DNA from: Ulva prolifera
Lineage: Eukaryota; Chlorophyta; Ulvophyceae; Ulvales; Ulvaceae
NCBI GenBank assembly: GCA_023078555.1
Contig: CM041196.1
Coordinates: 11,798,985-11,862,984 of the forward strand
Direction of reading: 5' to 3'
DNA: 64,000 nt
The notes beneath the pieces were generated by a model. The model worked only from the letters and a program-made list of their open reading frames with translations, ran no database searches and was not told the origin of the DNA. The translations under genes were made by a program, and so were the position numbers. Shown here piece after piece: positions 6,074 to 64,000 of this stretch (the stretch's first letter is position 1; each line of letters opens with the position of its first letter).

Positions 6074-9000
6074 ATGGCAGCTCCGGAAGTCGGTGAGGAA
6101 GAAAGCGGCTCTTTCGAAGTAGCGACATGGCGTGTTGTCACGCTGTTTCTCGTCATCGTCGCAATAGATACAGCATGGGAGTTCTTCGACGAGTTTGTGA
6201 CCCATCGACTGAAAACGAGAATGCAGATCGGGCTGATGCACGCCTGGGAACAGCTCAAGTTCGAGACCATGGCCCTAGGCCTCATTTCGCTGCTCCTCGT
6301 CGTTTGCGAGGTATGGCCACCAAAGCAAAGTGGTCAACTCCCTGATGTCTTCTTGTTTGCGATGTTTGCGTCATGACACTGTCCGCCTTCGCTGTGTTGA
6401 CCCAGCAATGGCTCTACGTGCCGCTGAGATTCGACTCACTGTCATCCGGCACTCCGCGTGTACGTGCAGGAACAACTGCTCAAGATCTGTATCAACAGCC
6501 CTGACGAAGACAAGGCGGAGTATGGCTACGACACCAAGGGGGGCAGCCCGTACCCAGACGCTGGAGCTCCAGCAGAAGCACATGGAGAAGAACACCACAG
6601 GCGACGCCTACTAGCAGCAGCAGGCGGAAACCCATGCCCTGAAGGCAAGGAGCCGATCTGGGAGAGCGAGCTGATCCACAAAGCCCACATCCTCATCTTC
6701 CTCATCGCAGCCTGCCACATCGGCTACGCCATGATCTCCATCTCGCTCTCGATGCTCGCCATGCGCCGCTGGCATAAGTTCGAGGAGCGAGTGAAAGGAG
6801 GCGAGCTCCTGCCTCTGCCTCTCGGTGGCCTGCAGAGGCAGGGCGAGCCCACCTTTGTCTTTGGCCTGCGCCAGTGCCTGCGCCAGTTCACTCATCGCTT
6901 GGACGTGGCCACGTACAGCGCCCTCCGGGCCCTGTTCGTTGACAGAGTCAATGTGCGCCTCCTGTGCCTGCCATGCAGATGTGCCTTTACACGGAGCACA
7001 CAGAGCACACATCTGGCCTGCAGTTCTGTTGTGCATCTGCAACAGCATGTCCAGGCTGGCTTGAACCAAGCTCCTCGGCCACCCAGTCTGCTTTGGGACA
7101 GTATCGGTGGTTGTCCGTCATACTTGCCGACCCTTGCTCGCATGTTTCACCAGAATGTCAAAGCGATCCGTCAGGTCGATGTGCAGGATCATTGACTCCT
7201 CACTGAATGCTATTGCGCCATTGTCACATTTTGCGGCATGAAAGATGTGGGACAGTGTCCCCCCCCCCCCCCCCCCCCCCCCCCCCTGTAGTGCCACACA
7301 CTTGTAGCCATGCACCCCACGTAACACACATATGCACTGACTTCACTGGCATAAATGCCACCGCAGCCACCGGCCCCGCACAGCATCCACCACGCCCCAC
7401 CACCACTACCGCCAACCCCACGCGTCCGCTCTCCCTGCAGGTCGGCGCCGATTTCGACTTTGCCGCGATGATCCAAGAGTACCTCACGGAGGAGTTCGCG
7501 CGTGTCGTGCGCTTCGACCTCGTGATGTGGGGCATCGCGATCCTCTGGATCGTCTTCCCGGAGGGCTCCTATGGGGGCTTCTGGATGACGGGCGCCTTCA
7601 TGCTCGCCTCCGTCGCCGCCGGCGCGAAGCTCACCGCGGCAACCTCGCACCTCGCGCGCCACGCGTACAACCTCTACTACCAGCCCCTGCCGCGTGGCGG
7701 CGGCGGCGGCAGCGGCGGGGTGCCGGAGCTGGGCCGCAGCGCCGGCACGCTGGCGCCGAGCGGGGGCATGTCGGCAGGCGCGAAGGAGGTGCGTGTTTGG
7801 CGGACGTGTGTGATGCATACGTTGCGCGTGCATGCATGTGCAATATGCATGCAGGACGGCACCTCTCAAGGACCGTGTCGGGAGCATACGCAGTGTGTCT
7901 GGATGCGGTCGCTCCAACGTGACGAAAACGTGTGATGTGTCTGGTGGCTCGGTGCGGATGCCCCACATCGCATTGCTGGCTCTGTAAGCGAGGACCGCAG
8001 GGACTCTGAGGCAAGAGGCAAGACACTTCTGTGTCTGGGCGGTGTGTCAGGCCAGTGCGGTGAACACAGCCTGTACCTACTCCTCCGCCTCATCGCTTGA
8101 GCTAAGACGACAAAGCTGTGCAGGATACCAAGCACTGCCCATCACCTCCGCCTGGGCCCGTGGCCGAGTCAACCGAGGCCTTGAAACGCACCCGTGCTGA
8201 CCCCTCTGCCGCGGGCGGCGTCCTCCACACGTCCAACACCCCCGACGCGGACGCCCCGAGCACTGCTCGGGCCCTGCGCCGCGCACTCCGCGGCCACTCC
8301 CAACGCATTAAAGCCCCCTCCGGCCCTGGCGGCGTGGACGATGACCCGGATTCGTACGAGCTCCTCCGCCTGTTTTGGCTTCGCCGGCCGCGCCTCATGC
8401 TCCACATCTTCCGCTATGCGTTTTTCCAAAACGCGATCGCGATTGCGGCCGTGATCTTCGGGTTCTGGCAGGACGAGCACACGATCTTCGGGGGGGCGGT
8501 GCGCGGCTACGACAACACCGTGCGCGCGATCGCGTACCTGCTCCTCTTCTTTGTGCTGCTGCTGCTCGTGCACACGTCGGTGATCCTGTTCCCGCTGTAC
8601 GCGCTCACGGCGGGAACTGCGGAGTTTGGGTCGCCGGCGGGTGTGCTCGACTTCGCGCGGCGCCGGGGCATCCGGCCGGACCTCGTACTATTCCTGGAGG
8701 AGACCGCCCCCGCCAAGGTGTGTTGCTCCGGGCCTCTTTGCCTCTACTCTGAGAACCTGCTGGGCTCGATTTTGTACAGCTGCGATGTCTTGCGTTGAGG
8801 CTGCTATGCAATTTGAAAAGTTCCCAATAAGCCAAAACCCGGCCGTATCGTTATGCATGCATGACCCCATCAGCCAGCGCTCACCAGACCGCCACCACGT
8901 GGCTACAGGGCGCTTCACCGAAAACAATCCCGAAGCCCAAGCCCAAGTGCGACATCGCCGGAACGCTCCTCGTCCCCAGCCGCTCCATCCCAGAGGATGC

Positions 9001-9436
9001 CAACCACCTCGACAGCGACGAAAGCGATGACGATGCCGAACTGCCGCCAGTCGCGGTGTGCGACGACGGCACCTCCGGCGACGGGCCGCATGGTCCGGAG
9101 GCCCTCTCTGCGGTCCCGGCGCCTGCACGCATGCTGCGCGCCAGCAGCGTCAGCGCGCCGCCGGCCGGCAGGGCCGCTGGAGGCGGCTGTGAGCCAGTGT
9201 CCCTCTCGCAAGCGTACTCACTGGGCAGCGCCGCGCCGCAGCACAGCACGCAGCACAGCACACAGCACGCGGTCGCCTCGCCGCATGTCGAGGCGTCCGG
9301 CGGCTCCGGCACGCATGGTGCGCCCTTGCATGGCCACGCGCCGGGCATGGCGGCGACGGTGCAGGGTTTGTTGGAAGGCATGGCCGCGCGGCGTGTCGAG
9401 GCGATGGCCGCTCGTATGCGGCGGCCGCGGCGCTGA
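6074..9436 (+). CDS. MLO-family seven-transmembrane protein
   Basis: Five exons, all phase 0: 6074-6310, 6470-6952, 7441-7788, 8124-8717 and 8909-9436 (TGA), giving 729 aa. The ATG sits in ATCATGG and leads straight into TM1. Hydrophobic segments lie near residues 17-35, 65-79, 151-176, 265-281, 286-306, 448-471 and 492-514. MLO hallmarks are the CPEGKEPIWESELIHKAHIL stretch before TM3, MRRWHKFEE after it, the FDF..MIQEYL loop, LFWLRRPRLMLHIF before TM6 and FPLYAL in TM7. Plant MLO proteins act at the plasma membrane, bind calmodulin, and are linked to calcium signalling and powdery-mildew susceptibility. The tail after TM7 (about 210 aa) is low-complexity and acidic/serine-rich, and I could not place the usual calmodulin-binding helix. 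Usual family length is 500-600 aa. Exons 1-2 use mixed third bases and exons 3-5 nearly all G/C. Confidence 0.88.
7259..7286 (+). repeat. Poly-C tract in MLO intron 2
   Basis: An uninterrupted run of about 28 C residues within the intron between MLO exons 2 and 3. Length in such tracts is often unstable or mis-sequenced. Confidence 0.9.
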
Positions 9437-11338: not shown

Positions 11339-14300
11339 CTACAGCGGCGACCCCTGCGCAAACAGCGCCGACCCCGAAGCCACATGCCGCTGCAGAGCCT
11401 CCGCATACACCTCCGCATTTCCCGGGTCAGGCTCTATCTCCGCGGCCTCCATTTCCGGGGGGTGCGCCCTGACAAATGCGGCGACGTCGGCGCCCTCGTG
11501 CACGGCCGCGGCCTGCAGCGCGGCGCCCAGCGCAGCACTCTCCGCGATCTTCGGCAGCCGGACGGGCAGGCCCAGCACGTCGGCGATGATCTGGCGCCAG
11601 AGCGGGTTGCGGGAGCCTCCACCGACGAGCCGCACGCTCGACATGCTGATGTCAAAGCCCTCCAGCCTGCACGGAGCAGATTCTGCTTGATGGCGACAGA
11701 GACGAGGAGGCAGGTCGCAGTGCATGGACCTCATGCAAGCAAAGGACCCCGCGCCGCTGCAGCGCAGGCATCGCTGTGCGTGTCAGAGCATGGTGAAGGG
11801 AAAGTCGCAGCCCCTGGCATTGTCCCCGGTGCTCACGCAGCGGAAGCATGGAGGGGTGCCAGTGCACAGCAGTGTTGGGTTGTCGGGCCCGATCATATGG
11901 AACAATTCAGAATATTCAGCTCTAATTTGTGGGTGGCAGCCCTGGAAATGCTGCACCGCGACCGGACACTGGTGCACAGCTCTGTTTCCGAAACCGCACC
12001 CCCGGTACAGCGCCTCAAGAACACACCGAACGCCTCCGAGACAGCACTGGTGCAGGCTTTCACTGGTAGTGTGATGGACCAGCATGATGGGCCTCAGCCC
12101 TGGTGGAGCACCTCCATAGCGCCAGAACCTTGTGAAAGCCGCAGCACCAGCACCGGAACACACGTTCCCCGGAGGCTGCACCGATGCATGGAGGGACACC
12201 CCAGACCCAGCACCGCAGCCAGTCTACACCGGCAAATTATTCGGTGGCACACGGCCCCTTTGCAGTCAACAAGGCGCGGTCGATGGTTTGTGGAGGGTCG
12301 GCGGACACCGCGTAGGTAGTAGCAGAACTGGGCCACTGTGTCACGTTGGTGGGGATAAGTGCGCAGCCAAAGCAGAAGCGAAGCCCGGGAATCCATGACT
12401 GTTGCGTCCAGCAGCCAGCTATAGCTAAGACAGAGCATGAGGCCCGGTCAGCGACGATCCACCCTTCCATCCTAGACCGAGCCTTGCATGCACTGGATGA
12501 ACTGTAGTCTGCCTGGGGCTCAGGTGTTGTGAGGGCGCTCAACAGTGCATGGACCCGGAGCTGCATGCATGGGTATACCAGGCAGCACAGGGTTGAACGG
12601 CAAAGCAGCACAGGGTGGAGGAACGCTCACAGGTCAATGCCGGCAGCTAGCGAGAAGGTGCTCCCCTCCAGCGCTGCACGATACAGCAAGCCTGGCTGGC
12701 GGAGGGCCCCGGGCGTGAGTCCGAGGATGCCGCCGCGCGCATGCGGCCAGTCGGGCGTACGCTCCCCCGAGAGGTACGGCAGCATATACACGCCGCCGCA
12801 CCCCGGCGGCGCGGCGGCTGCGGCGGAGGTGATAGCCTCCATATCTTCCCCGAACGCCGCGCGCACCTCCTCGGGCGGCTGCGTGCAGTTCATCGTGCAC
12901 AGCAGCGGTAGCCATTTGCCTGCGACGCATCAACGGAGCTGTGAAATGCTGCCAACAACAACATATATAAATGAAAATTCTTGGCCAGTCGACATGAGAG
13001 ACACGATTCGGTGAGATTCATCGGTTCTCGGTAGTATAGTGGTTAGTATCCCCGCCTGTCACGCGGGAGACCCGGGTTCAATTCCCGGCCGGGAAGGAAG
13101 CCATGTTTTTTGCCTGGAATTTGGCGGATGTGTGCAGTCCGTATCCACTTCACTGTTGCCTGATGTGGTACACCGTGGATCAGCATGCGCACGCTTCTTC
13201 AGGCTGACATAGGCACTTGCAGCCGTGCAGCCAAGCAAACATCGACAGATCCACTAGGGAAACTTCACATGCAGCGTGTTCGACCCCAATCAGCAAAACT
13301 GTGCCCCAGGCCCTGCAACACTTCTGCGACCGCCGTTCATATCCTAGACCACATGACGTTTTGCAGCGAATGTTCCCGAAAAGGTGTAGAATATAATCAG
13401 CTGCAGAGCACCGCTGCAGGCCGGGGGGCACACCGGTTGCATCACAAAACGGCGCCACCTGGCCACTCGGGTCCAGCACCGCCTTGTCTGAGGGGCAGAA
13501 CAGAGTCCCCGACGTGCCCAGGGACACCACCAAGTCCCCCTCAGCCACTGCGCCGACCCCTAGCGCGCTCGCCATGTTGTCGCCGCTGCCAGGCGCGACC
13601 GTCACCCCCGCGCGCAGCCCGAGCGCCGCCGCGGCGTCCGCGCGCAGCTCCCCGATAGACTCGTTCGGAGCTACGAGGTCCGGGAAGGCGCCGGAGAGGG
13701 AGGGGAGGACGCGGCGGATCGCGGCGGCGTCATGCGTGCGCGCCTCGACGTCAAAGACGCCCGTGCCGCTCGCATCCCCACACTGCAAGCACTGCTTCCT
13801 GTTATATCACGTGGTCGATGACATGCCACTGCTGGATGATGCAGGGGGGGGGGGGATTCGTATGTGAACGCTGGCGGTTGACTACATGCATGCGCACGTG
13901 CACCTGGTGGTGTGGGCGCGGATGTTGGCACAAGCCACCTTGCGTACGCACGATGCAGGAACCATCGCTTGTGGACTTTCTGGGCGAGACTGTGGAACAC
14001 GACCGTGTGGATGCACCTTCACTGCTCGACAGTGAGCTGTGCACATCGCATGTCATGGCAGCAAAGCCACCGTGTGGATGCGATGCCAATGGCGCACTGG
14101 TCGCCACTCAGAGGCAACACCAAAATTCTGCGAACAATCATTGTATGTGCATTGCATTGAGGTCCACTGATGCATTTACCGGCAGAGGTAGTATCAATAG
14201 AGCAGAGACCCACACTGCGGCTGCGGCATCCCGCGCAGCGCCGCATGCATGGACGGCCCGCCTCCGCGGAACGCACACGGTGACAGACCAGTGACATGAC

Positions 14301-15660
14301 CGCTTTGCCCATGGGGGACTGGGACACTGTAAACGCACAAGGGTCCAGTGGTACTGTGGTCACACCACTGGACTTTTTCATCCACACAGGAACCGCACCT
14401 CCATCGCGAAGTTCCCGGTGAGCCAGAAGTTCACATAGTCGTGCGGCAGCAGCACCGTCTCGATGCGCGCAAACTCGTCCGGCTCCTCGTCCGCCATCCA
14501 CAGCAGCTTCGGGGCCGTGAACCCCGCGACGACGGTGTGGCCGAGCTCGGCGGAGAGCCGGGTGGCTTGGGGGGCTGCTTCGACGTCGCACCACAGCTTC
14601 GCCGCCCGAATCACGCGGGCGTCAGCGTCCAGGGCGACGAGACCGTGCTGTTGGCCGCTGACGCCGACAGCGGCTACAAGGGATGCAGCGACTGTCTGCA
14701 GTGCTTGTGCGGTGGACTCCTGGACTGCCTGCACCAGATTTGGGTTGCTTGATGTTGCGGTCATTCACCTCACAACCGATCCCGAAAGACAGTGATGAAG
14801 TGGCCATGACTGCATGTGATTGGGCCAGTTGCCTGTACCGCAATCACTCTGCACATTGGCACCTTGACAGTGTGGGGGCTCAATCACTCCAGCCGCTGCG
14901 ATCACAAGGGCTTCGCTCAGGGCTAGACTCGGTCTCTCGCCAGAGACATGTACGCATTGCTAGTACAAATTTACTAGTAGACGAAGTGTCCAAGAATGCA
15001 GCAGCAGCAGCAGCTGCAGGTGGTGAACCAGGTGGTGTCAATGGCTGAGATGGAGGTGTACACATGTGGTTCCTAGGCTGTATTGACCTTGCGCAAAGTG
15101 CTACAGACAGGACGCTATCGTCCTGCGGATTTGAAGCATGCGGCTCAGGTCCGACACTGCCACGTAGTAGACCACCCTTCCAACGACATCAGAGCTCGAG
15201 GTATTGTCAATGGGATTGCGTCATGCATGGGTATGCACTTGTAGACTTCCAGTGGCAGAGATGTGAGGATGGATTACATGTGTTCTGCCCGCTGTGGCAT
15301 GACCAGACGCAAGAGGGCTGCAACAATATCGCCCAAGGCCTATCAAGCTGCTTCATGACAAGAATTTATATTTGTTCGCAGTGATCGAGAGCTTGTGTGC
15401 GGCAGCTAGCGTCCAGACGCGCGGAGGTGCATGCCGGTTGTTGACAACAAACAACAATCATTCATTGTTCCGTATCATACAGCAGCTTCGCAGACCCGCA
15501 CATCTATCCAGGTTTCCGGATCTTGCTCGGCTTGCCCAGGCCTCGTGGAGATCACATCGTACGCCTTTTGACCAGACGACACTACACGACGCTGTTTAGA
15601 GTCCCACACCAGCGCCTTGCAGGACTGCGTTCCTACATCTAAGCCTAGATACAGCACCAT
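11339..15660 (-). CDS. xylB: Xylulokinase (FGGY carbohydrate kinase)
   Basis: Five exons on the minus strand: 15660-15502, 14728-14399, 13782-13434, 12919-12631 and 11666-11339 (stop), with phases 0, 0, 1 and 2 all closing correctly, giving 484 aa, the normal xylulokinase length. It phosphorylates D-xylulose to xylulose 5-phosphate, feeding the pentose phosphate pathway. The N-terminal FGGY domain opens with LYLGLDVGTQSCKALVWD (the DxGT phosphate loop), followed by GVSGQQHGLV, KLWCDVEA and HDYVNFWLTG. The hinge MECGDASGTG is typical. The C-terminal domain has VAPGSGDNMASALG, SLGTSGTLF, LPYLSGERTPDWP and VRLVGGGSRNPLWRQI. Exon 1 has about 58% GC3 and exon 3 about 85%. Intron 3 carries a tRNA-Asp gene on the opposite strand and intron 4 a hAT-like MITE. 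Confidence 0.93.
11870..11971 (+). mobile_element. hAT-like MITE, copy 1, with perfect 8-bp target duplication
   Basis: A 102-bp element beginning CAGTGTTGGGTTGTCGGG and ending CACCGCGACCGGACACTG, so its ends are imperfect inverted repeats. It is bounded on both sides by the identical octamer GTGCACAG (11862-11869 and 11972-11979). The 8-bp duplication and the CAGTG terminus are hallmarks of hAT transposons. There is no coding capacity, so it is non-autonomous. Related copies are at 37296-37398 and 47903-48005. It lies inside xylulokinase intron 4. Confidence 0.85.
13025..13095 (+). tRNA. tRNA-Asp (anticodon GTC)
   Basis: Folds as a full cloverleaf: acceptor stem TTCTCGG/CCGGGAA (13025-13031 with 13089-13095), anticodon stem CCCGC/GCGGG around the loop CTGTCAC with GTC at 13058-13060, and T-arm CCGGG-TTCAATT-CCCGG. 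The internal A box (TAGTATAGTGGTT) and B box (GGTTCAATTCC) for RNA polymerase III are intact, and there is no tRNA intron. It lies in intron 3 of the xylulokinase gene on the opposite strand. The sequence closely matches the general eukaryotic cytosolic tRNA-Asp. Confidence 0.96.
13106..13111 (+). terminator. RNA polymerase III terminator of the tRNA-Asp gene
   Basis: A run of six T residues on the coding strand, ten bases past the tRNA 3' end, as expected for Pol III termination. Confidence 0.75.
13843..13855 (+). repeat. Poly-G tract in xylulokinase intron 2
   Basis: About twelve consecutive G residues within the intron (poly-C on the transcribed strand of the gene). It is similar to the poly-C/G runs at 7259-7286, 25700-25717 and 48416-48428. 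Confidence 0.8.
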
Positions 15661-16323
15661 GACGAAGTCGTATGTCTGGCTTACGAAGAAGCGGCGCAGG
15701 ATCGCTTCATCATTGCGCCATCCCAGAATCACAACTCACCTCCAGAAGGCTAGCAAGTGCCACAATCATGGATTGTTTCAAACAGCATAAGAGGGCTTTG
15801 TGGAGTCTATTACACGCAATAAGGGGCATGCCTGTGACTGGAGGTGCGAGTGACAGACGAGCTGATTGGGTGTCTCGGATGCAGATGGTGGCGTTGGTGC
15901 GGTTCACTACTTCCAACCCACATATCGCGGGTGGCATGCCACGCAAGCGAGAGCCCCTGCTGTAGGGGGGCCACATTGAAGCCCGGTTCAGAGTGGGGTA
16001 ACCTGGCGATGTTGCCCCCCTTGGATGTTCGCGCTATGGTCGCAACAGGTGCAGCCTGTCCTGTTGAGGCAGACTGTGCAAGCGGACAGCTCAGGTATAC
16101 GCTCGTGGATGTCAATGCAAGACAACAATGTCCTTGAGTTCGATTGTTGTACCGTGTGGTCCGCTGCCCCCTGTGCAAAATTGCTTATTGGCATACCCGA
16201 TACGGACATCGTGCTTGCAACCCATTTTCGCGGTGTCGTAGGCTAGTGCACGGAACATTGTTCACGTCCCGCAGTCCACAACGCCTGGGACGTCGTGGTT
16301 TTATAGAGTGAGAAAGCTTCATT
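15661..16323. promoter_or_regulatory. Shared upstream region of divergent xylulokinase and ER J-protein genes
   Basis: 663 bp separate the two start codons, which point away from each other. No coding feature is visible inside, so it must hold both promoters and 5' UTRs. I saw no strong TATA box or an ER-stress element I could defend. Confidence 0.5.
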
Positions 16324-19300
16324 ATGAGGCTGGTGTTTTCACTTAGAGCTGCCTTCCTCTGTGCATTCACACTCCTGGCTGGTGTCGTGCAAGCAGTGCG
16401 CGAGACGAAATATTACGACCTCCTTGCAGTGTCCCCGGAGGCAACAGAGCAAGAAATAAAGAAGGCGTATAGAAAGGCAGCCTTGTACGCAGCTGTTCTC
16501 TTTTCGCAGCACCCAACTGCTCTCCCAGGCGTTTCCAACGTGATCACTGAACCAGCCCCGCGATCCCCTGCGCATTTCACGACAGACCTGTGTATGATGA
16601 AGTCTAGGCGCTCGCAGTTCCTGGAATGAACGGATGGTGATGAGGCGTTCGCCTCAGTTGCCCGTGTTGCGACTTGGCTTCTACGCACGTCACCCAGCTC
16701 CACTCAGCATTATTTACAGCCTTGCCGCTGCCTGCAATATTCATTTGCTTCCTACCTGAATATCTGAGAAGTCTGAGACATCTGTCAATGGCGTGTGTGC
16801 AGGAAATGGCATCCAGACAGGAATCCAGACAACAAGGAAGAAGCAGAGCAGAAGTTCAGGGAGGTATGTAAAGCGTGCTGCTCAGCACCTGCACACGAAG
16901 ACCTTTCGAACGCATACGCATGGTTCCTAGCAGGTACTTCAGGCACTCTGCAGCCTCTCACCCCTGCCTGAATTCTGCCCCGGACTGCAGGTCGCCCAAG
17001 CATACGAGGTGCTGTCAGATGCAGAGCAACGGAAGGTCTATGACCGAGTACGCTAGAATCTTGAACATACTCTAGCATCACAGGCCTGATCTGATGTATA
17101 GCAAATCCAACATCACCGGATCAGTTGTCTGAGCTGCCTTTGTCAGTCCTACAGCTACTGCACCACAGCTACTCCAACACAGCAAGCCACCCTGGTCATG
17201 GTGTGCACATGCTGACATCAGTCCGTCACACTACTGCGCTTCTGCAGTTCGGAGAACAGGGCATCTCAGGGGCTCCAGGTGGAGGAGGACCCCAACGAGG
17301 ACGTGGCGGGGCTGGCGGTTTCCATTTCCATGGCGGGGTATGCCCTTTACCTAGCAACACCCCAGCACGGCACTTCAGCTTGCTCGTGCATTCGCTTTGG
17401 CTCTACAACTGCTTTGGCACGCACAGAGCCTCTGTGAGATGCTGAGCCTGGGATGTGTGCCGCTCGTGACAGAACGTATTTGCGTCCACAATCAAAAGCT
17501 GTGTGGCAATCCAGCGACACGGCCGCTATACCACTGGATCCTTGCACGTCGCGATGTTCAAGGATCCAGCGGTATATCTCTGGAGCTAGCGGCCATTTCA
17601 CTGGATTGCCACTACAATAAAAAAGCTGCCTCTCATTGTTCAACAATCATTGCTGGCAGATCGTTGGTCACATGCACCCGAGTGCCCAATGATCCGCACG
17701 GTAAACGCATGAGCTTCCCAAGCAGCCTGGCGCTGTAGCCTCGCGATGTGTACCTTGCTGCTGGGCTGCGCCCCACCGGAGCGCCTCGCATGCTGCGCTC
17801 CGTCAGCTTCTGCAGGGCTGCTGACGGCGTCCCTGCTGCCAGCAGGGTCGCGCCAGCAGAGCTGCTGCCCACATGGAACACTGCGAACCGCCTCACGCGT
17901 GACATGCCACACTGCAGCTCACCTCACGTGTTACACGGATGAAGCCGGAGAGGCAAGACCACCTCATGTGTGACACGCCTCAGCGCAGCCCAGCTCCGGC
18001 ATGCCACACTGGAGACCACCTCATGCACGACACACCTACATTCACTGTTGGCGGTGGCGTTGGTGTTCCTGATCCTGTGCGTCGTCGTGGCGTTGTTGTT
18101 CCTGGTCATGTGCGTCGTTGTGGCGTTGGCGTTCCTGATCCTGTGCGTCGTCGTGGCGTGGGTGTTCCTGGTCCTGTGTGTCGTTGTGGCATGGGTGTTC
18201 CTGATCCTTTGCGTCGTCGTGGCGTTGGTGTTGCTGAGCCTGTGCGTCGTTGTGGCGTTGGTGTTCCTGATCCTGTGCGTCGTCCTGGCGGTCCCACCAG
18301 CCTCCCTGACTTTGTCCTTGCAACACTGCAGCCCATCTCATGCACAACACACCACGCTGCAGGGCCGGGATCCATTTGAGATGTTCAAGACGATGTTCGG
18401 GGACGACTTTGGTGGTGGCGGCCGCGGCGGGTCGTTCTCGTCGTCATCGCCCGACGGCCGCCGCTCCTTCACGATGCACTTCTCAAGCTCCGGGGGGCCC
18501 GGGGGAGGCTTCGCGGGCGGCTTCCCCGGCGGCGGCGGCGGCGGCGACGGCGGCGGCGGGGTGTTTGGCAACGCGTTCCGCAACGCGCAGCAGCGGCAGC
18601 AGCACCCGGGGGGCGGAGGCGGCGGCCGGCAGGGTGCGCTGAAGCTCACGTGCCGCCACTGTTATGCCAACAGGATTTTGCCATACGCATGAACGCCGTT
18701 GAGATGTTGTGCCGCGGATGCATGAGAATTTCTTTGGGCAAGAGTGCCTGTGGCAGAGTGCCATCGAAAGCGACCATTCGTTATCATGATATCAAGCTGA
18801 GCACTTGCCTCTCGCGGTCCGGTGAGTGCGGAGTCGTCAATTGCAGCATCAAATTGGATTTGGGATCATGCATACGTACATACATGATGATTCCATCCGC
18901 TCTTTCGTGGTGTGTTAGCTAAAGTGTGCTGAGGGGGTGGGGTTGCTGCAGCGCCGCCAAAGCCACTCTACACCGCCGACGGCTCCGTCCCGCTCGTCAC
19001 CCCCGACACCTTCCCGACACCTTCCGGCGACTTCGTCACCGTCGTCCACTTCTTCCAGCCGGGTGACTCCAACGACGCCCTCGCCGCACAGGCCGTGCAG
19101 GCAGTCGCCGGGAAGCTCTCGTCGTCGCGCATCGCGAAGTTCGCGGCGCTCGACTGCCATGCGCATGCCACCCTCTGCGAGCGCCACGGAGTGGCCGGCA
19201 CGCCCGCGATCCAGGCGGTCGTGCCGGACGCGGACGAGACCGCGGAGTTCATCGGGACAATCTCGCCCGCGGAGCTCAAGGCGTGGACACTGCGGCAGGT

Positions 19301-22300
19301 GCCGTCGCACGTCACGGCCCTGCGCGGCCAGAAGGACCTCGACGCGTTCCTCGAGGTGCGCGTGCTATGCATGCTGTGCGTGCTGCGGTCGCGTGGCCTA
19401 TGGTACAGGCTTATGATTCTTCTGACACCCGTGGTCTCACCACAGCTGTTCAATGTCATCATACAGTTCCTTGGGATCGCACCCACGCGGATGCTCCCCC
19501 CCCGCAAGGGCCGTGGTGTCCACACTGAATGTGCTGTTAATGGCTGTGGCGCAGGTGCATCGGGCTGGGGTGGTGATTGTGTTCGTGCGATGAATGCTCG
19601 CTGAATTTTTCGTGGTGCTGTTCGCCGTACCGCACTTGCCCTTTTAATACACCGAATGTGGATGGGTGTGCGGCCCCGAGGGAGCATGTGGCCGGCATGC
19701 GATGGCGTGGCTGCAGGCCCCTGCAGGAGGGGCTGTGTGCGGCGGTGGCGACTGAGCGTGGGGGGTGCTGTTTGCAGAGGTGCACGCCGGGGAGCCGCGC
19801 GAAAGGCCAGAGCGCGGCGTGGGCGGCGTGCGCGGTGCTCGTGACGGACAAGGCCGAGGTGTCGCCGCTGTGGGCGAGCTTCTCCACGCAGTTCCGCGGC
19901 AAGGTGTGCCCCGCCTGCCGCTGCTCGCCTGTGGTGCCACCTACCTCTCTGCTTTTCTTGTCGCAACGAACGAACACGCCCCCTCGACCGCGCACTCCGG
20001 CCCGTCTTGTCATTGTTGGCCCCGTGCACGTTGGTGCAAAATAGCGGCGCGTCCACGATGTAGTATGCTAGTATATTAGTACTACTGAAGACACCTACGA
20101 AATGGAAGTACAGATGAGCAATACCACCTTGCACCATCGATGTCCACAACCGATTGATGCTGTCCGTGGTGGTCGACACATCCGTCACATACCACATGCA
20201 GTCCCTGTGGCTGTCGGCGGCCTGCATGAGCATTTGCTTTGCGACCGAGGTGCATCATACAGCCTGTTCATGCAGATGAAGTCAGGTCAATCGCATACAT
20301 AGCAGTCATCACAGACATCGATTTGATTCTGACGTTGCTGAGGGACAGCTATCGTATTGTACCGGTTGCAGTGATTCCACATATACTGCTTCATGTTGCC
20401 TTTACCGGCCAGGAATTCTGCCTGCTACACTGTCGATGATAAGAAGAATGGAATTCACACTATAGATCCTGCTGCATTATGATGGCAAGCCCAAATCCGA
20501 GCTGAGCACCTAGAATGTGCATATGGGCCCCTAATAGTAAGGGTTGACTTCATGCATCTCACTTGATACTTGGAGTCTCCATGGGTCCCGATGTACAGTC
20601 AGCAGCTGTCACAGCCACCCTTATATGCTGTTACGCACCATTAACTTATGGTTGTGCCATGCGGCAGACGTGCAAATGCATGCCCCTACCTGAATCATCA
20701 CCCAGGTCCACCACCTAAGGCATCCCTAGTGCAAGTTCACATGAGAGCCACTTAACCACTGCGTGAATAAGGAGTCAGGTATTTGGGTACATCCTGCCAT
20801 CTTGACAATGGTTATGGTTACTCAGATGTGCAAGCAGGAGCTGTGTCACAAGCTAGGCAGCCTGCCTAAGGCAGATGTCCCTGCTGGCTGACACAGTCAT
20901 TGTTGACTTGCTCTCTTCTTTTCACGCAAGCAGGAGCTGTGTTACAAGCTAGGCAGGTGTCCGTGTCCGTGCTGGCCGGCCGACGGAGTCATCATCGGCC
21001 AGACAATGATGACGTCGTATTCGTCATGCCCAGAGCCGGACAGCATGGAAACACAGCACAGAGCACAAACCGCAAGGCACAAACCGCAGTGCATCACAGC
21101 CTGTGCTGTGCAGCAGCAGCAGGAGCACTGAGGTCCATTGCCTGCGGCTGGCGGTTTGCATATGCATGGCCTCAGGCTGATATGGACCACTGTGACCGGT
21201 CATGCAAGTGTGCGGGTAGTTGTCATCAGACTTGATCACACCAACTTTCAGGCAGTTCAAAGTCAGTCAGAAAGTTCAAAGGAAACAGACTTCCACAAGG
21301 CAAACTTGCACTCTGGCTTTGGGACTTTGAAGCAGCAGAAGCTTGCACATTTAACATTGCCTGTGGTGCTCACTGCCCCCTCGCCTTTGCCATCTGTAGT
21401 GCAGGCAACATTGTGTTACAGGGACAAACGCGGCGAGGCGGGCAGCACGGCGAAACAAGCATCCCAAGAACACGACCACCAACCCAACTCAACGCACCCA
21501 CGCCACAGCCACAATAAGCGCAAGTTGAACCTACAGCGGCCACACCGAACTCACACACCAACGTTTCCACACACACACCCCCCAGCTGCAGGAATCATCA
21601 TTGTGTATCGTGTCTGGTGGGCCTGTGCTGTCTGTGTCTGCGCCAGGCTTTGTGGTTGGCCTTGTCTGGACGTACATATGGGAATGTGCCAACACCAGTG
21701 GGTAGGCGTGATGCCCGAGTTGACATTGTTCCTGCCATTCTCTGGCTGCCGGGGAACCCTGCAGACCCCTGCAGCGTGGCATGTGCCTATGCCCCACCCC
21801 CCTCGGACAACCGTACGCAACTCACAGGCCCTCCTCCTGTGCGAAGCGAGGTGGCCACACACGGCTGTTTCGATTCCCCCAGGCTCTTCCTTGCTTCGAT
21901 TGCCCCAAGCGCACGCAGAATCTGTGGCAATCCAGTGACATGGCCGCTATGCCACTGGATCCTTGCACGCCGCCATATCACTGGATTGCCACAGAATCGA
22001 ATCCAATCCACTGGCAGGGCCTGAACAGGAGGGGCACCTGCCACACTGTCCTCGACCTCCTTCTTTCGCGGCCGTGCTGCCCGCCTCGCCGAATTTATCC
22101 TCGCCACATTGGCCTCGACCTCCTTCTTCCGCGGCCGTGCTGCCCGCCTCGCCGAATATATCCTCGCCACACTGTCCTCAACCCATCGGTGTCTTTGCAT
22201 GAGGGACATGCTGCGGGAATGATTCTTCTGTATGGTGGGTGTTGGCAGTGGCTTGGGGTGCGCTGTGTTCCTGCATCTATGCTGCATGTGGTACAAGGAC

Positions 22301-45900: not shown

Positions 45901-48900
45901 CACACTTCGGGTACAATGCATGCATTCGCATTGATGAGGGGGGTTGCGTGCCCGGGGCATACTGTTTGTGTAGCACGCACAACCGTGGCGCATGGCCGCC
46001 ATGCAGCGTGCACCAGTGGCACTGCCATGGGCGCTGCGGCTGCTGCCCCGCCACACGGTGTAAGGGCACGTCCACACGCTCTGCATGCCACACGCCGTCG
46101 TGTCTACTTGTGTGCGGCCAAGAAAGTTTTATGTGACACAACGCGTCTGCGGTACAGCGCGGCAAGCAGTGCCCGGACTGCCCACAGCATGCTGTACCAC
46201 CCAGGCCCGCCCCATCGCTGTCGGCTAGGCTGCTGGTCACACTCCACCGACGCACAGCCCCCTGAAGTCAAGCATGGGGTGGGGGGGCGTCATGGCTTCA
46301 TCGCACGGCCCATCATTAAACTCCCGCTGATGCTGTAGCACCGGCATGGCATGCATGCAGGTGCACATCGAGGCGCGGCAGCTGGGGGCGGTGCGCGCCG
46401 TGCTCGGCCAGATGCGCACGCACGGCGTCAAGCCGGGGCCGGTAACCATCTGCCAGATCCTCAAGTCGTGCGCCCTCGCGGGGACGCCGGTCGAGGCGAA
46501 GGCCGTGGCCGTGCGGGTGTGGAAGCACATCCTCGTTACGCAGGTGTGCCTTCGCCACGTCTCCGTGCATGCGTCCCATGCATGCTTCAGGTCCAGCACG
46601 TGGCACACGAGGCTGTGCCCACATTTCACTCGACCGTCTGACGGCTCAAGGATGTTGCGCGTGGTGGCGTCGCCGTGTCTTCAGTGTACTGCTTTAACAA
46701 GTAAGTGTGCAGTTCTCTTTCTGTAGCCCGCCCGGTGAGTGAAGTGTTCCCTTCCTCCGACTGGGTCCTGGCACCAGGACCGTACGAACTGGACCGTACG
46801 AAATCCGCCGAATCAGAATAGTACACCATGCATGTGCACCATGCACGCAGCCGGGGCGGACAAAGCTGGTAGGCATGTGTCCTCATGCATGTGCAGGCGG
46901 AGCCGAACGAGGAGTGCTATAACGTGATGCTGAGCATCGTGCTGCGGGGGGACCCGAACTACGTGGCGCACGCGATGGAGGCGGTCGCGCAGATGCGGGC
47001 GCGGGGGCTCACGCCGCGCTCCGACACGTTCAACACCCTCATGCAGGCCGCGATCGGCAACGCCGACTTCCTGCAGGTGCGGCCCTGCTGCAGCCGGCCT
47101 GCTGTGTGCTGTGTGATGCGTGCTGTGGGTCCGTGCGCGGTGGTGCTCACACGCATGCATGCTGCATGTGGTCGGGAGGCAGCGCGCGAGGCAGCGAATG
47201 TCAAGCCGGAGTTTGTATCGGCGGTGGGTGTGCGAGCAGGCACACAGAACCTGTGGGGGTGCGTCGGTGAGTGTGGTACAGAGACAGAGTCGGGGAGGCA
47301 GGCAGCGGAGCAGGACCGCACGGAACGCAGGAGCTGGAACCCCATGCCACCGCCAGTCGCTGCAGAACCCAGACGCCTCGCAGATTCTTGGTTGTTCTGG
47401 CTCCCCGTTCGGTGTTGATGTGTGGAGCTGGCTGAGATTCAGTTCGATCATATTGTGCGAATGCGTGTTGCCGCCCTGCCTTTGCCCACGCGAAACAACC
47501 CATGACACTGTCTGACATGGCGTGCGCTGACTGGCGCTGACCGCACCGATCTCAGGTGAGAGCCGTGCAGCCAACACCAGGTTGAACAGACGCATGAGAC
47601 ACCATCCCCACGTGGCTGCAGGCGGTGACGCTGTTCCAGCAGCTCGAGGCGGAGGGCCTGCAGCCCGACGCCCGCAGCTACACGGCGCTGATGAAGGCGT
47701 TCCAGGAGGCCGGGGACCTCGTGCGCGCGCAGCGCGCGTACTCCGCGGCTGCCGACGCCGGCGTCGCCAACATCGTCGCGACGAACGCGCTCGTGGACGT
47801 GCTGGTGGACGCGCAGCGGCTACAGGACGCGGCCCGCGTCGTGCAGACGCTGCAGCGGCGCATCGTCCAGGGCGGCGGCAACGTGCAGGTGCGTGGGTAA
47901 TTCATCGAAAGGTCGCTGGCACCACCCACATAAAGTGATTCTGGTTACCTTGGCCCCTCATCTTGGGCAGCGGCCCTGGCAATGCTGCACGGCAATCCGA
48001 CACTGGCGTGTATGTGTGTGGTGTCACTTGCGGTGGGTGACGTGCGGTGTGACGGAGTGTCTGCCGTCACGCCGGGTGCTGCGCCGTCGGATCTGGCCTC
48101 TTCCGGCTGGTGTGCCACAAGGGCAGCGGTGCAGCATGCCCCACAAGGTTCGACCAAGTCCCTGACAGCAGATCGGTCACTAGGAAGCCCCAGTGTGACC
48201 AAATGCCCGGTAATGCTTCAGCATGCGCACGCCAACGTGCTGATGACTGTTTCTGTGTTCGTGTGGCAGTGCCGCCTCGCATGCATGAGGAACCTGCCAC
48301 ACGGTTGCGCGGCGCTAGCGTGACCTGCGCACTACAGATGTCAACCGTGCACTCCCTCACACCCGCAGAAGTGTTGAATGTGGACGTGGTCACTGGTGAA
48401 CCCCAGTTCTGCCCAGGGGGGGGGGGGGACCAATGTGAACTGTTCGCAGATCAAGGGTCGGTGTCGTGCCGCGAGTATCATTCCGTGGCATGCGCCGACA
48501 GGCCTGATGCGTGCAGGACGTGCTGCCGGGGTTCGGGGCGCTGCTGGTCGGGTACGCGCGGCAGCGGCGGTGTGCCGAGGCCGTGGCGCTGCTGCGCCGC
48601 TTCAACCACATCGGCGGCGTGCCCGACCAGTTCATGCTCGAGACCGTCCTCACCGCCTGCCTCACCTCCGGCGAGGTCCGCGCCCCGCCCCTGTCCCGCT
48701 GTCTGTCGTCCGCCGTGCTCCTCATGCATGTATACCATGCATGTGGCCGCAAGCCAACTCGCAACACAACATTCTGGGCGATGTGTTCAAGATCGCTGCG
48801 TCGAACTGAAAGGATGAATAACTCGACGACAAACAATTTATGGTTTTATTTTTTTGTTACAGCCGCAGCTGCGTGGCTATACGTTGTGCTATTCAGGTCG

Positions 48901-49503
48901 TGGTGTGTGCTGTATCTGGAGGTAGTGCTATGAATCACGACAAGGTCAGTGACTGTTCGCAGCAATCCTCGTGTGATTCCCGTCGTGTGATTCCCCTCAA
49001 GGTCGGTGGCTGTTCGCCAGCCCTTCTTCTGTACGAGGCCAAGTCTCATCGCAGACACGACACATTGTAGTGTTTTTACTAGCCTGCTTCTTGGTCACGC
49101 AAGATGTTGTTGCCTTCTTGGTGACTCGCTCTTACTGCTGAATGGAGCATGTATGCAAACAGTGTGATGACCGGCCCTTTTGGCGGTTAGCAGGGCCCCT
49201 GGGAATGACACATAGGTCAGCCTTGGTCCTGATCCCTCGCCTTGCCAACCGACAAACACATCCTCCGAGTGCTGGCCAGGTTGACAGTTCTGGCACTGGC
49301 TACAGGTGGTCTTCGCGAAGCAGGTCGTGCGCGCGATGCAGCTGAGCGGCAACGCCATCGACACCGCCTTCTACGAGCGCATCATTGACGCACAGATTGA
49401 CCGCGAGAACAGCGAGGACGCGCCCGCGCGGCGCATAGTCCTGCTCGAGCGCTTCAAGTTCTGGCTCGGCGTGCCCAATAGCTACTACAACGCCGAGGAC
49501 TAG
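42992..49503 (+). CDS. Pentatricopeptide-repeat (PPR) protein, probably organellar
   Basis: Eleven predicted exons: 42992-43295, 43397-43457, 43540-43684, 43908-44084, 45268-45396, 45596-45826, 46361-46543, 46897-47076, 47622-47888, 48517-48675 and 49306-49503 (TAG), about 677 aa. PPR motifs are clear from exon 3 on, for example VVCAALAKAGDHVDAWKLFKK, AYNMLISGHAQAGDIERASG, SYNTIISCLCRAGEAQQAQ and SYTALMKAFQEAGDLVRAQR, each a pair of helices. PPR proteins bind organelle RNA base by base and govern its processing, stability or translation. No E, DYW or SMR domain follows. The N-terminus is basic and lacks acidic residues at first, fitting a transit peptide. The first two exons are less certain, and an exon may be missing in the 1.2-kb intron after exon 4. 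Most introns are phase 0. GC3 rises from about 59% (exon 4) to about 92% (last exon). Confidence 0.85.
44755..44865 (+). repeat. 56-bp tandem duplication in PPR intron 4
   Basis: Two units sharing ACAGCATGTTGCGATCTGCA and GTGTGGTGAAGACAGAGCTG, starting at 44755 and 44811, almost identical. Confidence 0.9.
47903..48005 (+). mobile_element. hAT-like MITE, copy 3 (diverged)
   Basis: 103 bp in a PPR intron. It aligns with copies 1 and 2 through AGGTCGCTGGC, GATTCTGGTTACC, GCGGCCCTGGCAATGCTGCA and the right end CCGACACTG. The left end has drifted (CATCGAAAGG) and no target duplication is evident. Confidence 0.65.
48416..48428 (+). repeat. Poly-G tract in a PPR intron
   Basis: About 13 consecutive G residues, about 90 bp upstream of the exon at 48517. 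Confidence 0.85.
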
Positions 49504-59847: not shown

Positions 59848-62800
59848 CTACGGGCTCTTGCGGTGGATGAGCGCCGCTCCGTGCTCGGCGTACTCCTGCC
59901 GCGACAGCCACAGCTGGTGGAACGACCCGAGGCAGCCGAGGATGGACCCCCCTAGCCACACCGCAAACTTGCGCTCCGTCGTGTTGTGGTTCATCGACAC
60001 CTTGACCTTTGCGGCCTGCGGCGCGAGGTCCAGCAGCTCGCGCTCCAGCCGCTCCTTCGTCGACGGGAACAGGCAGCCGCCGCCTGCAGCAAATTCCGTG
60101 GTGACGTGTTGGTGAATAGACCCAACAAAGCGGCCTTGTCATGCATGGCCGGGGACGTGAACCCGCTCTTGCATCATCGGCAGCTAGCAGCCGCCATCGC
60201 CACCAGAACAGCGGAGTCGATGCCAGGACCTTCTCCTACAATGGTATACCACTGAACGCATGCCAGGTGTGAGTGGATGGCGCAGATGGGACGCTGCTGC
60301 TGCGATGAGAGGGCGATTGGTTGCGGCCATGTGACAGACATGCATGTACGGATCACACGCCGTGGCGACAGCTCCATGCATGAGCGGTGTGCCAGACGTC
60401 TACAAATGCAGTCCTGGTCGATACGATTTACGTTCGCAACCGTGCCACGGCCGAGGCCGGGGGCATGGACGACCTGAGCCACGCACAGGACAGTATGTCC
60501 GCGTGGCACGCGGCCGCGCCTGCAAGCCTCGCCAGCATCGCCGCTGTTTCACGCACCAGGGGAGGCAGGCGATCTGCCGGGCACGGTGCTGGATCCCACT
60601 TGCAGAGCGTGCAGGATGGCTACCATCATCGTGCCGTATGACGGCATCACAACGCATGGTCCCCATGCATGCCGGGAGGAGTGCCCCGGTGTGGCGACCG
60701 ACGCCGTTTAAGCACAATGTATGACGGCCATGCATGCCGGGAGGAGCGCACCAGAGAGGACGACGCCGTTGTAGAGGTCCTTGTGGGCGTCGATGTCGGT
60801 CTGGTTGACGGCGTCGACGACGAGCTCCGGGAGGGCCTTCACGACGTCGCCGTCTGGCGTCGCGACCGGCCGCATGCCCTGGATGTTCTTCACCAGGCCC
60901 TGCACAAACATGCGTGGTGGACCCACTGGCGAATACATGCGCGATGGACCCACTGGCGAATACATGGCTCTTGGGGCTGGGGTGCGGCAGGTGGATGGCA
61001 GTCGCAGGAGGGACTGGCCGCAGCGTGCGTTGGCATCTGAGGTGCTCTCCGCTTGCCCACGTGCTATTCACCAAAAAAAACGGTTGGCCGAATGGATCAC
61101 CAGTAGGGTTTATTCTTGACAATGACGTTGTGGCATGATTGCATTCGATATACTGAACATCACATTTGAAATATAATCGAGGTCCCCCAGTCACATGCAA
61201 CTCCATGTCGGCGAGCGCACCGGGTTGAACATGATCTCCGGGATCTTGAAGCGCTCCACGCCGATCGCGACCACCGAGCCGTCCGGCAGCTCGTACGATT
61301 GCGGCGGCATGTTAGGGTTCTCGTCCTCCTGGAACGGCGTCTCGCTCACGCGGCACGAGGATTCTTTAATGTCAGCGAGCAGATGCCCAGAGGCCCAGGC
61401 GGTGTGGCTTGGGGTGGCGCCAGCCGACACCCCCCCGCCGCCGGCCTGCCGGTACGTGTACCACGGCTTGACAAAGATGGCTTTGGCGGCGAGGCAGTGG
61501 TGGAGGGCCTCGTTGAGGAGGCGGCCGCCGATGGGGGAGCGCATCACGGAGGAGCTGATGGAGTAGCCCTCGTTAACGGCCGAAACTGCAGGCGCGGTGC
61601 AAGGTCAATGGAGGATATACTGTGATAGCCGTGTATGCCGAGGACTTGCGTCTCATCCTCGACACAAACCGCATGGTGTCACGATGAACTTGTTAACTGT
61701 ATGCTAACAACTTGACAAGGGTGTCGTTGACCGCCGACACTGCAGGCGCGGAGGAGCGTGGGCGGGCGCGCAGAATGTCACCAGTGGCCATGCATTTGTA
61801 TGTGCTGGGAACCCTGGCCGCACAGCGGCAACCACATGGCTCAACACAAGAGGCCGCAGAGGGGACGGAGTGCATATCTGTGCATGACTCAGGAGCTGGC
61901 GGAGCAGCCACAGCGTGCGCTGCAGCTGCATCGCAAATGTGTCATGCGCGACGCCCCAAGAGCGCCAACACTCCCAAGCCTCGACTCACAGCGGGGATCG
62001 CACGGGAATCAGGGGCAGAGGTATTAATTGATTGTCATGCATGACTGTCATGCCTGAGGCCCGCGCACTGCCTCTCTCCAGAGACGACCGGCACAGAAGG
62101 GGCGGAGAGTAGCCGCGCAGCGACACACCGGAGGCTGGAGGCACAGCACAGCTCAACCCCTGCCAATCCTATGGCCCGCATTGTGGTGCTTGGCAGTGCT
62201 GCGGCATCGGTGGAACCGTGGCATGCACTCGTCACAGCGATCGTAGAGCATGCGCAAAGCAAAGCGCTGCATGCATGGGACGCGCACCGACGGTGCCGTC
62301 GTGGCCGACGTCGATGACGAGCGACGTCTGGCGGCCGAGCGCGAACGATGCAAGCACGGGGTTCTTCGCGAGGAAGACGGCCGGGCTGCCGAAGGACTCG
62401 AAGAGGCGCTCCACGATCTGCTCGCGCGCCGCCTTGGAGTAGAACGGCGGCTCGGCATACACCAGGGGGTGCTCCGCGGCCTCGCACCGCATGCGGCCTC
62501 TGCGCACGGGGCCTCCGGTCAGCGGGAAGCAGGGACGCCTCACAACGCGTCCGTCACATGGACCTGGGCGAGCGCACGGCAGGGAAGACTGCCTGGTACC
62601 GTCAGTGGTACAGAATCACACGCTCTGGTGCTTGAGAACCATCGCGTGAGCACGGGCCAGGGCATGGCAGAGCAGACTGCGGGATCCGGTCGGTGGCAAC
62701 GAATCGTAAACTCCTGGGCGAGCGTACGGCAGCGTAGAGGGCGGGCTCACGTCAGTGGGAACGCGTCACAAGAGCTCGCTGTGGCGCAGATCAACAAAGC

Positions 62801-64000
62801 AGGCTGCAACTGCCGGTCAATGAGGAGCAGCACCGTCGCCTGCCAGATCGCATAGCAAGCCCTGCTGATCAGGCTGCCACCAGCCACCAGGGAGCGCAAT
62901 GGCCCGGGCCATCGCATGGCGTTGGGGAGCAGTGCTTGCTGTGGTGGCCGGGGGTGTAGCCATGATCAGCAGGGCTTGCTGTAGGGCCTGGCAGGCAGAT
63001 GTGCATCGGCAGCAGCGTCTGCGGATCGCTGCTGGCATGACAGCAAGCACAGCCTGTGGGTCATACGGTACACAAAGAGCAGCTCAAAGTTGTGTGGTTG
63101 GCAGGACTGGTACACGGCAGGGGAATGAGTGCGGGGGCAGGTCAGACAGGGGCACCGGTGAAAAATCACAGATCAAGGCAACATTCATGAACAGCAAACT
63201 GATAAACGTCGCATGGAGGATTGGCAGCAATGGATCGAGGTCGCCAGACCTGAGCAGCTGTGCCGGTGAAAGGCACCTGGACATGCACGCGAGCAAGAGA
63301 ATGATGTACATTTTGAGATGAAACGGAGGAGTGGCGATGAGGCACTGCACGATCGCGATCAGGTGCTGACATGATCAGCTGACATGATCAGTCCTAGATG
63401 TAACAGCTGAAAAACGCGTCAAGACGAGAAAGCCTTATCAATGACGTATTGGGATGGTCAATAGCACAGCAGCATACGGGCATACGGCTGCAGATATGTG
63501 GATCATCATCAGCACTGCTGTTGGACAGGGCTTTGTTCAGGTGAGACTAGCGAGAGCAGGAAATGCGCACATTAGGGCTTCATGTACAACGGTGTCCCAC
63601 AGGTCCCAGTCTGATACTATACCGTCTTTTATAGTGGGAAACACCTCCATGTGATCTGGAGGCTTGATGTGCGGATGGTTCAGCGCCCGCAGTCCCCGCT
63701 TTTGCCACGCCTTCTGCTCCGCAGGAGCTGCGCCTTCTCCACCAGCATTTGCTGATGTCGATGGAGGATCCACGTCCATCGGTGTCGCGCCCGCTCGCTT
63801 GTCCTCGGGGATCTCTCCCACGGTCTGTGTAGACACCAGGCATTCTGACCAATGAAGCATATATTGGGAACAGAACACCCATGCACTGCAATACATGCTA
63901 ATAAAATTGCATATTGTGCACTTCCTGAAACATCAGCGGTCATGGGTGCCGACCAGATGGATCGCACCGTCCCGAAGACAACACGCGGAGTGTCTTCTCC
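59848..64000 (-). CDS. ARP4: Actin-related protein 4 (ARP4/BAF53), 5' end off window
   Basis: Six exons on the minus strand: 64000-63968 (partial), 63824-63571, 62499-62288, 61585-61221, 60899-60752 and 60083-59848 (stop), with phases 0, 2, 1, 0 and 1 all consistent. About 415 residues are visible; some 25-30 N-terminal residues lie beyond the edge. ARP4 is a nuclear actin-related subunit of the SWR1, INO80, NuA4 and SWI/SNF chromatin complexes. The sequence shows TPMDVDPP, DHMEVFPTIKDGIVSDWDLW, AVFLAKNPVLASFALGR, SSSVMRSPIGGRLL, DIKESSCRVSETPF, SYELPDGSVVAIGVERFKIP, EIMFNP, NTTERKFAVWLGGSILGCLG and the terminal IHRKSP. These match the plant ARP4 type closely, including the MDVD insertion that ordinary actin lacks. 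GC3 is mixed in the first visible exons and nearly all G/C later. Confidence 0.95.

What the first reader, a model, noticed from the sequence alone, without database searches (positions are those of the whole stretch)
6074..64000. Step-like GC3 rise from promoter-proximal to distal exons in most multi-exon genes
Hand counts of G/C at third codon positions: J-protein exon 1 29/53 and exon 7 41/42; PPR exon 4 35/59 and last exon 60/65; xylulokinase exon 1 31/53 versus roughly 85% in exon 3. MLO, bZIP and ARP4 show the same jump by eye, on both strands, and the introns between GC-rich exons stay near 50%. So composition tracks position within the gene rather than strand or region. The known grass-type gradient runs the other way (5' high). 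Possible causes are gene conversion bias focused on gene bodies or 3' ends, replacement of distal exons, or a chromatin boundary about 0.5-1 kb into each gene. I know of no description of a rise this sharp.
Basis: partly seen in the sequence, partly recalled or inferred. Interest (0 to 1): 0.8.

Follow-up and report, generated by a model that had tools for sequence, protein, structure and literature searches.

The report
Genes start GC-neutral, turn GC-rich inside
In this green seaweed genome the first kilobase or so of many genes uses all four bases about equally at silent sites, while the gene interior is pushed almost entirely to G and C; this turns the well-known grass pattern upside down and suggests a DNA-level bias that avoids gene starts.

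Summary
Sharpest is the PPR gene: 111/220 before 44084, 452/467 after 45268 (exons of 90 nt or more).

The genome (88.9 Mb) is a green alga, probably Ulva prolifera: a plastocyanin exon is 45/45 identical to PDB 7pcy (species recalled). In 240 kb elsewhere the rise is present but not universal (9 up, 4 down, 13 neither of 26). Pfam-anchored codons go from 0.60-0.70 in the first kilobase to 0.75, then 0.85-0.91. Step positions vary.

Low exons have A=C=G=T at fourfold sites; high exons have G=C and A=T. GC1, GC2, amino acids and intron GC shift the same way within genes. Presumed highly expressed genes are not the GC3-richest. This favours a strand-symmetric DNA-level bias (conversion or repair) sparing gene ends over codon selection; the sharp exon/intron contrast stays unexplained.

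Not wholly undescribed: Qin et al. 2013 reported low terminal, high interior exons in three algae. Amplitude and base symmetry look new.

The parts
6074..9413 (+). MLO-family gene (PF03094): exons 1-3 GC3 52/79, 117/161, 23/42; exons 4-6 108/116, 166/198, 136/168
   Evidence: gene model and counts; Pfam; short predicted exons beyond 9413 left out as doubtful
11339..15829 (-). Xylulokinase-like FGGY kinase: 5' exons 15/30, 35/58, (13/36 uncertain), then 82/92, 97/112, 79/96, 93/110
   Evidence: Pfam FGGY_N/FGGY_C; short predicted exons 13353-13400, 12112-12175, 11868-11950 (GC3 .44-.59) are probably wrong
16324..19903 (+). J-domain protein: first exon 29/53, later exons 83/95, 123/135, 41/42
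   Evidence: DnaJ; predicted exon 17989-18290 overlaps a 33-base tandem repeat and is probably not coding
34461..36590 (-). Uncertain gene model with no supported step (GC3 0.78 then 0.90, gain 2.0)
39877..42533 (-). Gene model with 0.46 then 0.75 GC3, step gain 8.5; not scanned against Pfam
42846..44084 (+). PPR gene, low-GC3 5' exons (>=90 nt): 111/220 together
   Evidence: PPR families
45268..49503 (+). PPR gene, high-GC3 exons (>=90 nt): 452/467 together, separated by introns of 46-67% GC; shorter predicted exons 46007-46057 (.71), 47366-47419 (.50) and 48897-48902 not counted
59848..63896 (-).
   Evidence: a further 5' exon probably lies upstream of the one seen
1341..2463 (-). Small HSP20 gene: 0.34 then 0.75, step gain 10

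Best explanation
Unconstrained DNA in this genome sits near 52-57% GC. A directional pressure towards G:C, equal for G and C and equal against A and T, acts on gene interiors and raises synonymous sites to 85-98% GC. It is weak or absent over roughly the first 0.5-1.5 kb of genomic distance from the start codon, and somewhat weaker near the stop, so terminal exons and some short genes keep the background composition. Shown: the position dependence, base symmetry, coordinated shift of GC1, GC2, amino acids and intron GC. Indicated on few genes with recalled expression: no elevation in highly expressed genes. Inferred: that the pressure is GC-biased gene conversion, or an equivalent GC-biased repair, excluded from gene-start chromatin. 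Not explained by this alone: why introns respond only about 13-19% as strongly as third positions; I suppose that indel-rich intron alleles abort heteroduplexes, or that splicing holds intron GC down.
For: Fourfold sites: low exons A .259 G .258 C .245 T .238 (n=1769), high exons G .460 C .443 T .051 A .046 (n=4413). The rise persists at sites not in CpG context, GC .60 to .96. All 9 twofold amino acids move from 0.50-0.61 to 0.81-0.95, none exempt. Within genes GC3 correlates with GC1 (rho .43), GC2 (.22), GARP residues (.31), FYMINK residues (-.33) and adjacent intron GC (.45); introns beyond 1 kb are slightly richer than nearer ones (mean +.019, 24 of 36 genes, P=.048). Genomic distance fits better than coding distance (weighted RSS 102.5 vs 114.8; exon rank 104.9). 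Plastocyanin exons 0.59 and 0.71, tubulin main exons 0.63-0.74, LHC main exons 0.70-0.79, against 0.97 in PPR distal exons (expression levels recalled, not measured). Longer gene spans have higher GC3 (rho .36, P=.027, 38 genes).
Against: Introns between high exons are only about 60% GC, and GC falls within about 50 bp of the exon edge with no long decay (40 introns); plain meiotic conversion should not see exon borders. Outside the window 4 of 26 tested genes step down. GC3 falls again beyond coding base 2400 (.678, 5 genes). One RbcS copy reaches 0.89 within a 1.3-kb gene whose first exon is .72. No polymorphism or recombination data were available.
Confidence: 0.45

Rival explanations
1. 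Selection on exonic synonymous sites for GC (exon recognition against lower-GC introns, mRNA stability, avoidance of cryptic splice or poly(A) sites), relaxed in 5' and terminal exons.
For: The contrast between exons and introns is sharp and third positions respond roughly five to seven times as strongly as introns (slopes .19 and .13).
Against: G and C, A and T are symmetric, which RNA-level selection would not be expected to give; GC1, GC2 and amino acids shift too. NCG exceeds NCC and NGC exceeds NGG by second base rather than by amino acid, and CC/GG depletion is also seen in introns.
Confidence: 0.25
2. Chromatin-dependent mutation or repair bias: a gene-body mark, stronger on exons, recruits mismatch repair and lowers GC-to-AT mutation; gene-start chromatin lacks it.
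For: Would explain position, length dependence and exon preference together. Low exons show a CpG-decay signature (NCA over NCG: for example ACA .36, ACG .27; TCA .33, TCG .18) while high exons prefer NCG; CpG o/e .92 low, 1.12 high.78 introns.
Against: Non-CpG sites rise as well. Equilibrium near 0.96 needs about a 24-fold directional ratio, large for mutation bias alone (inference). No chromatin or mutation data here.
Confidence: 0.2
3. Translational codon selection that strengthens along the message (cost of premature termination).
For: A rise along the coding sequence is predicted.
Against: Genomic distance fits better than coding distance; genes presumed highly expressed are lower, not higher (few genes, expression recalled); no tRNA-like preference for C or G enders.
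Confidence: 0.04
4. Repeated conversion of distal exons by cDNA, which is truncated at its 5' end.
For: Would be exon-only and spare 5' exons.
Against: Predicts that nearness to the 3' end sets GC3 and that short genes are high; instead the within-gene slope with distance to the stop is positive when start distance is held (.036.008-.069) and short genes tend to be lower. Distal exons keep their introns.
Confidence: 0.02
5. Artefact: the gene finder adds false low-GC exons at 5' ends.
For: Ab initio models contain doubtful short exons; a finder with untrained codon models loses the effect (permutation P=0.45) and one averaged class weakens it (P=0.02; paired P=0.09).
Against: Pfam-supported codons, whose coding status does not rest on exon scores, show it: 9 of 10 paired genes rise, exon-level rho .56 over 63 exons (starts and exon borders still come from the finder). 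Conserved domains lie in low 5' exons of DnaJ (.52.42), Derlin (.43) and actin-related genes (.48.62), and in mid-GC3 ones of MLO (.67).
Confidence: 0.04

Closest known systems
Algal exon-position codon bias (Qin et al. 2013, PMC3576282; text parts 1-3 of 4 read)
   Same: In Chlamydomonas, Volvox and Ectocarpus first and last exons have fewer NNC/NNG codons than interior exons; the reverse of land plants.
   Different: What I read gives averages by exon number. Here single genes jump from about 0.5 to 0.97, and base symmetry, intron and amino-acid covariation and genomic distance were examined. Qin et al. found no CpG-context dependence in algae; here low exons show CpG decay.
Intron-bounded step gradients in rice and Arabidopsis (Ressayre et al. 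2015, PMC4684703; abstract and Discussion read)
   Same: Sharp steps within genes, GC-rich coding parts alternating with poorer introns.
   Different: There the outer exons are GC-rich and the interior is low (U shape), with negative correlations of synonymous and nonsynonymous GC inside; here ends are low, interior high, and codon positions correlate positively. Only 5 of 17 up-steps fall within five codons of an intron.
5'-3' GC gradient of grasses and other plants attributed to GC-biased gene conversion (PLoS Genet 2017, PMC5460877; passages read)
   Same: Positional dependence that may come from biased conversion.
   Different: Opposite direction, and there short genes are on average GC-richer while here short genes tend to be poorer.

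Membership tests
Algal arch-shaped exon GC3 profile (Qin 2013) | First exon lower in NNC/NNG than interior exons | tested here: met
   (not seen with the untrained finder)
Algal arch-shaped exon GC3 profile (Qin 2013) | Last exon lower than interior exons | tested here: met
   tested as distance, not last exon as such: slope with ln distance to stop .036 (.008-.069), weaker than the 5' effect; 3' terminal exons are the least certain part of the models
Algal arch-shaped exon GC3 profile (Qin 2013) | GC-ending codons increase with intron number | not tested
   only gene span was tested: rho .36 with GC3
Grass-type gBGC gradient | GC3 highest at the 5' end | tested here: not met
Grass-type gBGC gradient | Short genes GC-rich | tested here: not met
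GC-biased gene conversion in general | Strand-symmetric preference for G and C | tested here: met
GC-biased gene conversion in general | Acts on non-coding DNA as on synonymous sites | tested here: inconclusive
   introns covary (rho .45 within genes) but with slope .13
GC-biased gene conversion in general | Excess of AT-to-GC variants at high frequency; link to recombination | not testable with these tools
   no polymorphism or recombination map
Translational codon selection | Highest bias in highly expressed genes | tested here: not met
   plastocyanin, tubulins, LHC, RbcS against PPR; expression recalled, few genes

The most novel reading that the evidence does not exclude
In Ulva the gene start is a bounded domain of about a kilobase that is shielded from a strong, exon-favouring, strand-symmetric GC-biased conversion or repair process running through gene interiors: an inverted counterpart of promoter-centred recombination, with a boundary sharp enough to read from a single gene.
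Probability: 0.3. Interest if true: 0.7.

Novelty: new variant of a known kind. Interest (0 to 1): 0.5.

Why it matters
A leading account of within-gene GC gradients in plants rests on recombination near gene starts, giving GC-rich 5' ends. A green-lineage relative with the opposite, steep pattern, symmetric bases and a weak intron response would let biased conversion, repair targeting and exon selection be separated in one genome. It may also matter in practice: gene finders with one coding model miss low-GC3 5' exons, so gene sets made that way may lack true first exons.

Tried and rejected
Organism: guessed from genome size, then tested with plastocyanin. Light-harvesting proteins only showed a chlorophyll a/b green alga. 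Cytosine methyltransferase domains match in the genome (8 exon matches, all over the cut-off), so CpG methylation is possible; not pursued.

CpG loss alone as the cause of low exons was rejected: CpG-free fourfold sites also rise.60 to .96. cDNA conversion and translational selection: see rivals. A chaperonin-family test found 41 exon matches but their DNA could not be fetched. No relatives of this genome are held, so no cross-species test.

Literature: ten searches ran; one search was a malformed query. Among the rows listed (searches listed only 10-20 of many more) I saw no nuclear GC3 study of Ulva; one search gave a chloroplast codon study. The library lacks most subscription papers. Papers opened: three (PMC3576282, PMC4684703, PMC5460877).

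Rows dropped. Eleven predicted genes judged by me transposon-like or repetitive were left out and the codon-family part of 61; one search used a mechanical rule instead (3-4 dropped). Genes cut at the 5' end of a stretch were left out of positional counts (39, 42, 48, 57, 61), those cut at either end out of the span and regression tests (41, 42). Exons with coding score under 10, or under 60 nt (90 nt), were dropped; one search kept 175 of 353. One search needed 100 codons in at least two exons. For Pfam I chose 30 of 60 predicted proteins (some cut short when pasted): 28 had a hit and were all used, with the best stretch or two per protein only. One search stopped with an error after printing part of its results; the rest was redone.
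Full report
What was examined. The window is bases 11,798,985-11,862,984 of contig C1 of an 88,887,114-base genome in 44 contigs. A plastocyanin exon found in the same genome is identical over 45 of 45 aligned residues to PDB 7pcy and, by my count of the printed alignment, 39 of 45 to 1iuz; I recall these as plastocyanins of Enteromorpha (now Ulva) prolifera and Ulva pertusa, which no call stated. Light-harvesting proteins point to a chlorophyll a/b alga. I take it to be Ulva prolifera or a very close relative.

Gene models. No annotation was available, so I wrote a two-strand hidden Markov gene finder with two coding classes (GC3 0.5 and 0.9, free to switch at any codon or intron) so that neither class is tied to position, and trained it on the window and 20 stretches of 10 kb; four more stretches were added later. 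Sixty predicted genes of at least 240 coding bases came out of 304 kb.

The window. In the PPR gene exons of 90 nt or more carry 111/220 before base 44084 and 452/467 after base 45268. Ten window genes could be tested for a step: 8 have a supported rise, 0 a fall, 2 neither. Window introns average 57% GC (69 introns).

Beyond the window. Of 26 further genes tested, 9 rise, 4 fall and 13 show no supported step. In a regression with a separate level for each gene (144 exons, 38 genes) GC3 increases with the log of genomic distance from the start (.084.049-.114) and, less, from the stop (.036.008-.069); coding distance fits worse, exon rank almost as well. Exon-order permutation gives P=0.0002 for confident exons with the trained finder, P=0.02 with one averaged coding class, and no effect (P=0.45) with untrained codon models, which find few low exons; with all exons of 45 nt or more it gave P=0.012, and the paired tests there ranged from P=0.0005 (cut at 500 bp) to P=0.059 (cut at 1 kb). 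Because these depend on the finder, I used codons inside Pfam matches as the firmest set: 28 of 30 proteins scanned, 4328 codons, of which 23 genes and 3613 codons have a predicted start. GC3 by distance was .614.683.700.603 in the first four 250-base bins.749 and .906 in the next two, then .850 (1.5-2.5 kb) and .905. The bins hold different genes, and starts and exon borders still come from the finder; paired across 1 kb, 9 of 10 genes rise.

Step or slope. Across the 17 rising genes of the 36 tested, a single step gains 371 log-likelihood units against 254 for a line in genomic distance and 276 for a line in its log; the step model spends one extra parameter per gene. Exon GC3 has two modes, near 0.57 and 0.9, with a dip at 0.65-0.70 (175 exons of 90 nt or more). 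Step positions vary: median 0.97 kb, quartiles 0.47 and 1.46 kb, range 0.18-3.4 kb; 5 of 17 lie within five codons of an intron. A step is therefore a fair description, a fixed boundary is not.

What moves. In low exons fourfold sites are A .259, G .258, C .245, T .238; in high exons G .460, C .443, T .051, A .046. All nine twofold amino acids move together. Within the four C-second families G exceeds C, within the two G-second families C exceeds G; CC and GG are also depleted in introns (.70.65), so this looks like DNA context and not tRNA choice. Low exons also show CpG decay, but sites free of CpG rise too. Within genes GC3 covaries with GC1, GC2, amino-acid composition and adjacent intron GC. 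Such coordinated shifts are expected of a DNA-level pressure.

Expression. Plastocyanin exons have GC3 .59 and .71 (a third predicted exon.52, is probably intron), main exons of three light-harvesting genes .70-.79, main exons of three tubulin genes .63-.74, RbcS .53 to .88 in one copy and .72-.89 in the other. These genes are highly expressed in algae by common knowledge; PPR genes are not. GC3 is thus not a mark of high expression here, although the sample is small and expression was not measured.

Length. GC3 rises with gene span (rho .36, P=.027, 38 genes), as expected if gene ends are spared. Some short genes at L024 and L017 are flat near 0.5-0.6. RbcS and a few others are exceptions.

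The unexplained part. Introns between high exons are about 60% GC (40 introns), those between low ones about 53% (14), and the fall at the exon edge happens within about 50 bp. Gene conversion alone should not respect exon borders. Rejection of heteroduplex in indel-rich introns, an exon-enriched chromatin mark, or added selection on exons could supply the difference; I cannot separate them without polymorphism, recombination or chromatin data.

Prior work. Qin et al. 2013 (PMC3576282; parts 1-3 of 4 read) reported that in three algae interior exons carry more GC-ending codons than both terminal exons, opposite to land plants. Ressayre et al. 2015 (PMC4684703; abstract and Discussion) described intron-associated steps in rice and Arabidopsis, with high outer exons. 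A 2017 PLoS Genetics paper (PMC5460877; passages) ties the land-plant gradient to biased conversion near gene starts. The present pattern is a strong form of the algal one. What I did not see among the listings of the ten searches made is its amplitude in single genes, its base symmetry, or any nuclear GC3 analysis of Ulva.

Verdict. A real feature of this genome, clearest in the window and in homology-anchored codons, a new variant of a known algal pattern, most likely a strand-symmetric GC-biased process that spares gene ends; mechanism open.

Noticed in passing
window 18054-18290: A 33-base tandem repeat (7.2 copies) that reads as a hydrophobic [11 protein letters not shown] repeat in the J-protein model; probably an intronic minisatellite mistaken for an exon.
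   Followed up: partly
L016 about 221-10000: Two neighbouring predicted genes share long stretches of nearly the same protein and look like a tandem duplicate (the one scanned has no Pfam match); both have mid GC3.
   Followed up: no
L021 about 660-2190: A block of predicted exons (243 and 51 nt with equal intron lengths) occurs twice in a row with the same composition, an apparent recent tandem duplication at a reverse-transcriptase-like gene model.
   Followed up: no
L017, L024: Stretches where the predicted host genes (prephenate dehydratase, TPR, SWIB, NAD kinase, EF-hand) have GC3 near 0.4-0.7 and introns near 50% GC; a regional component or short-gene effect.
   Followed up: partly
window and loci: Predicted splice sites favour GTGCG donors and TGCAG acceptors; CA/TG dinucleotides are strongly over-represented (1.46-1.57) and TA depleted (0.57-0.60).
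   Followed up: no
G000 C8:3079269, C3:9584914, C1:10925093, C10:1716281, C6:534058: Cytosine DNA methyltransferase domain matches, so CpG methylation is possible in this alga.
   Followed up: no
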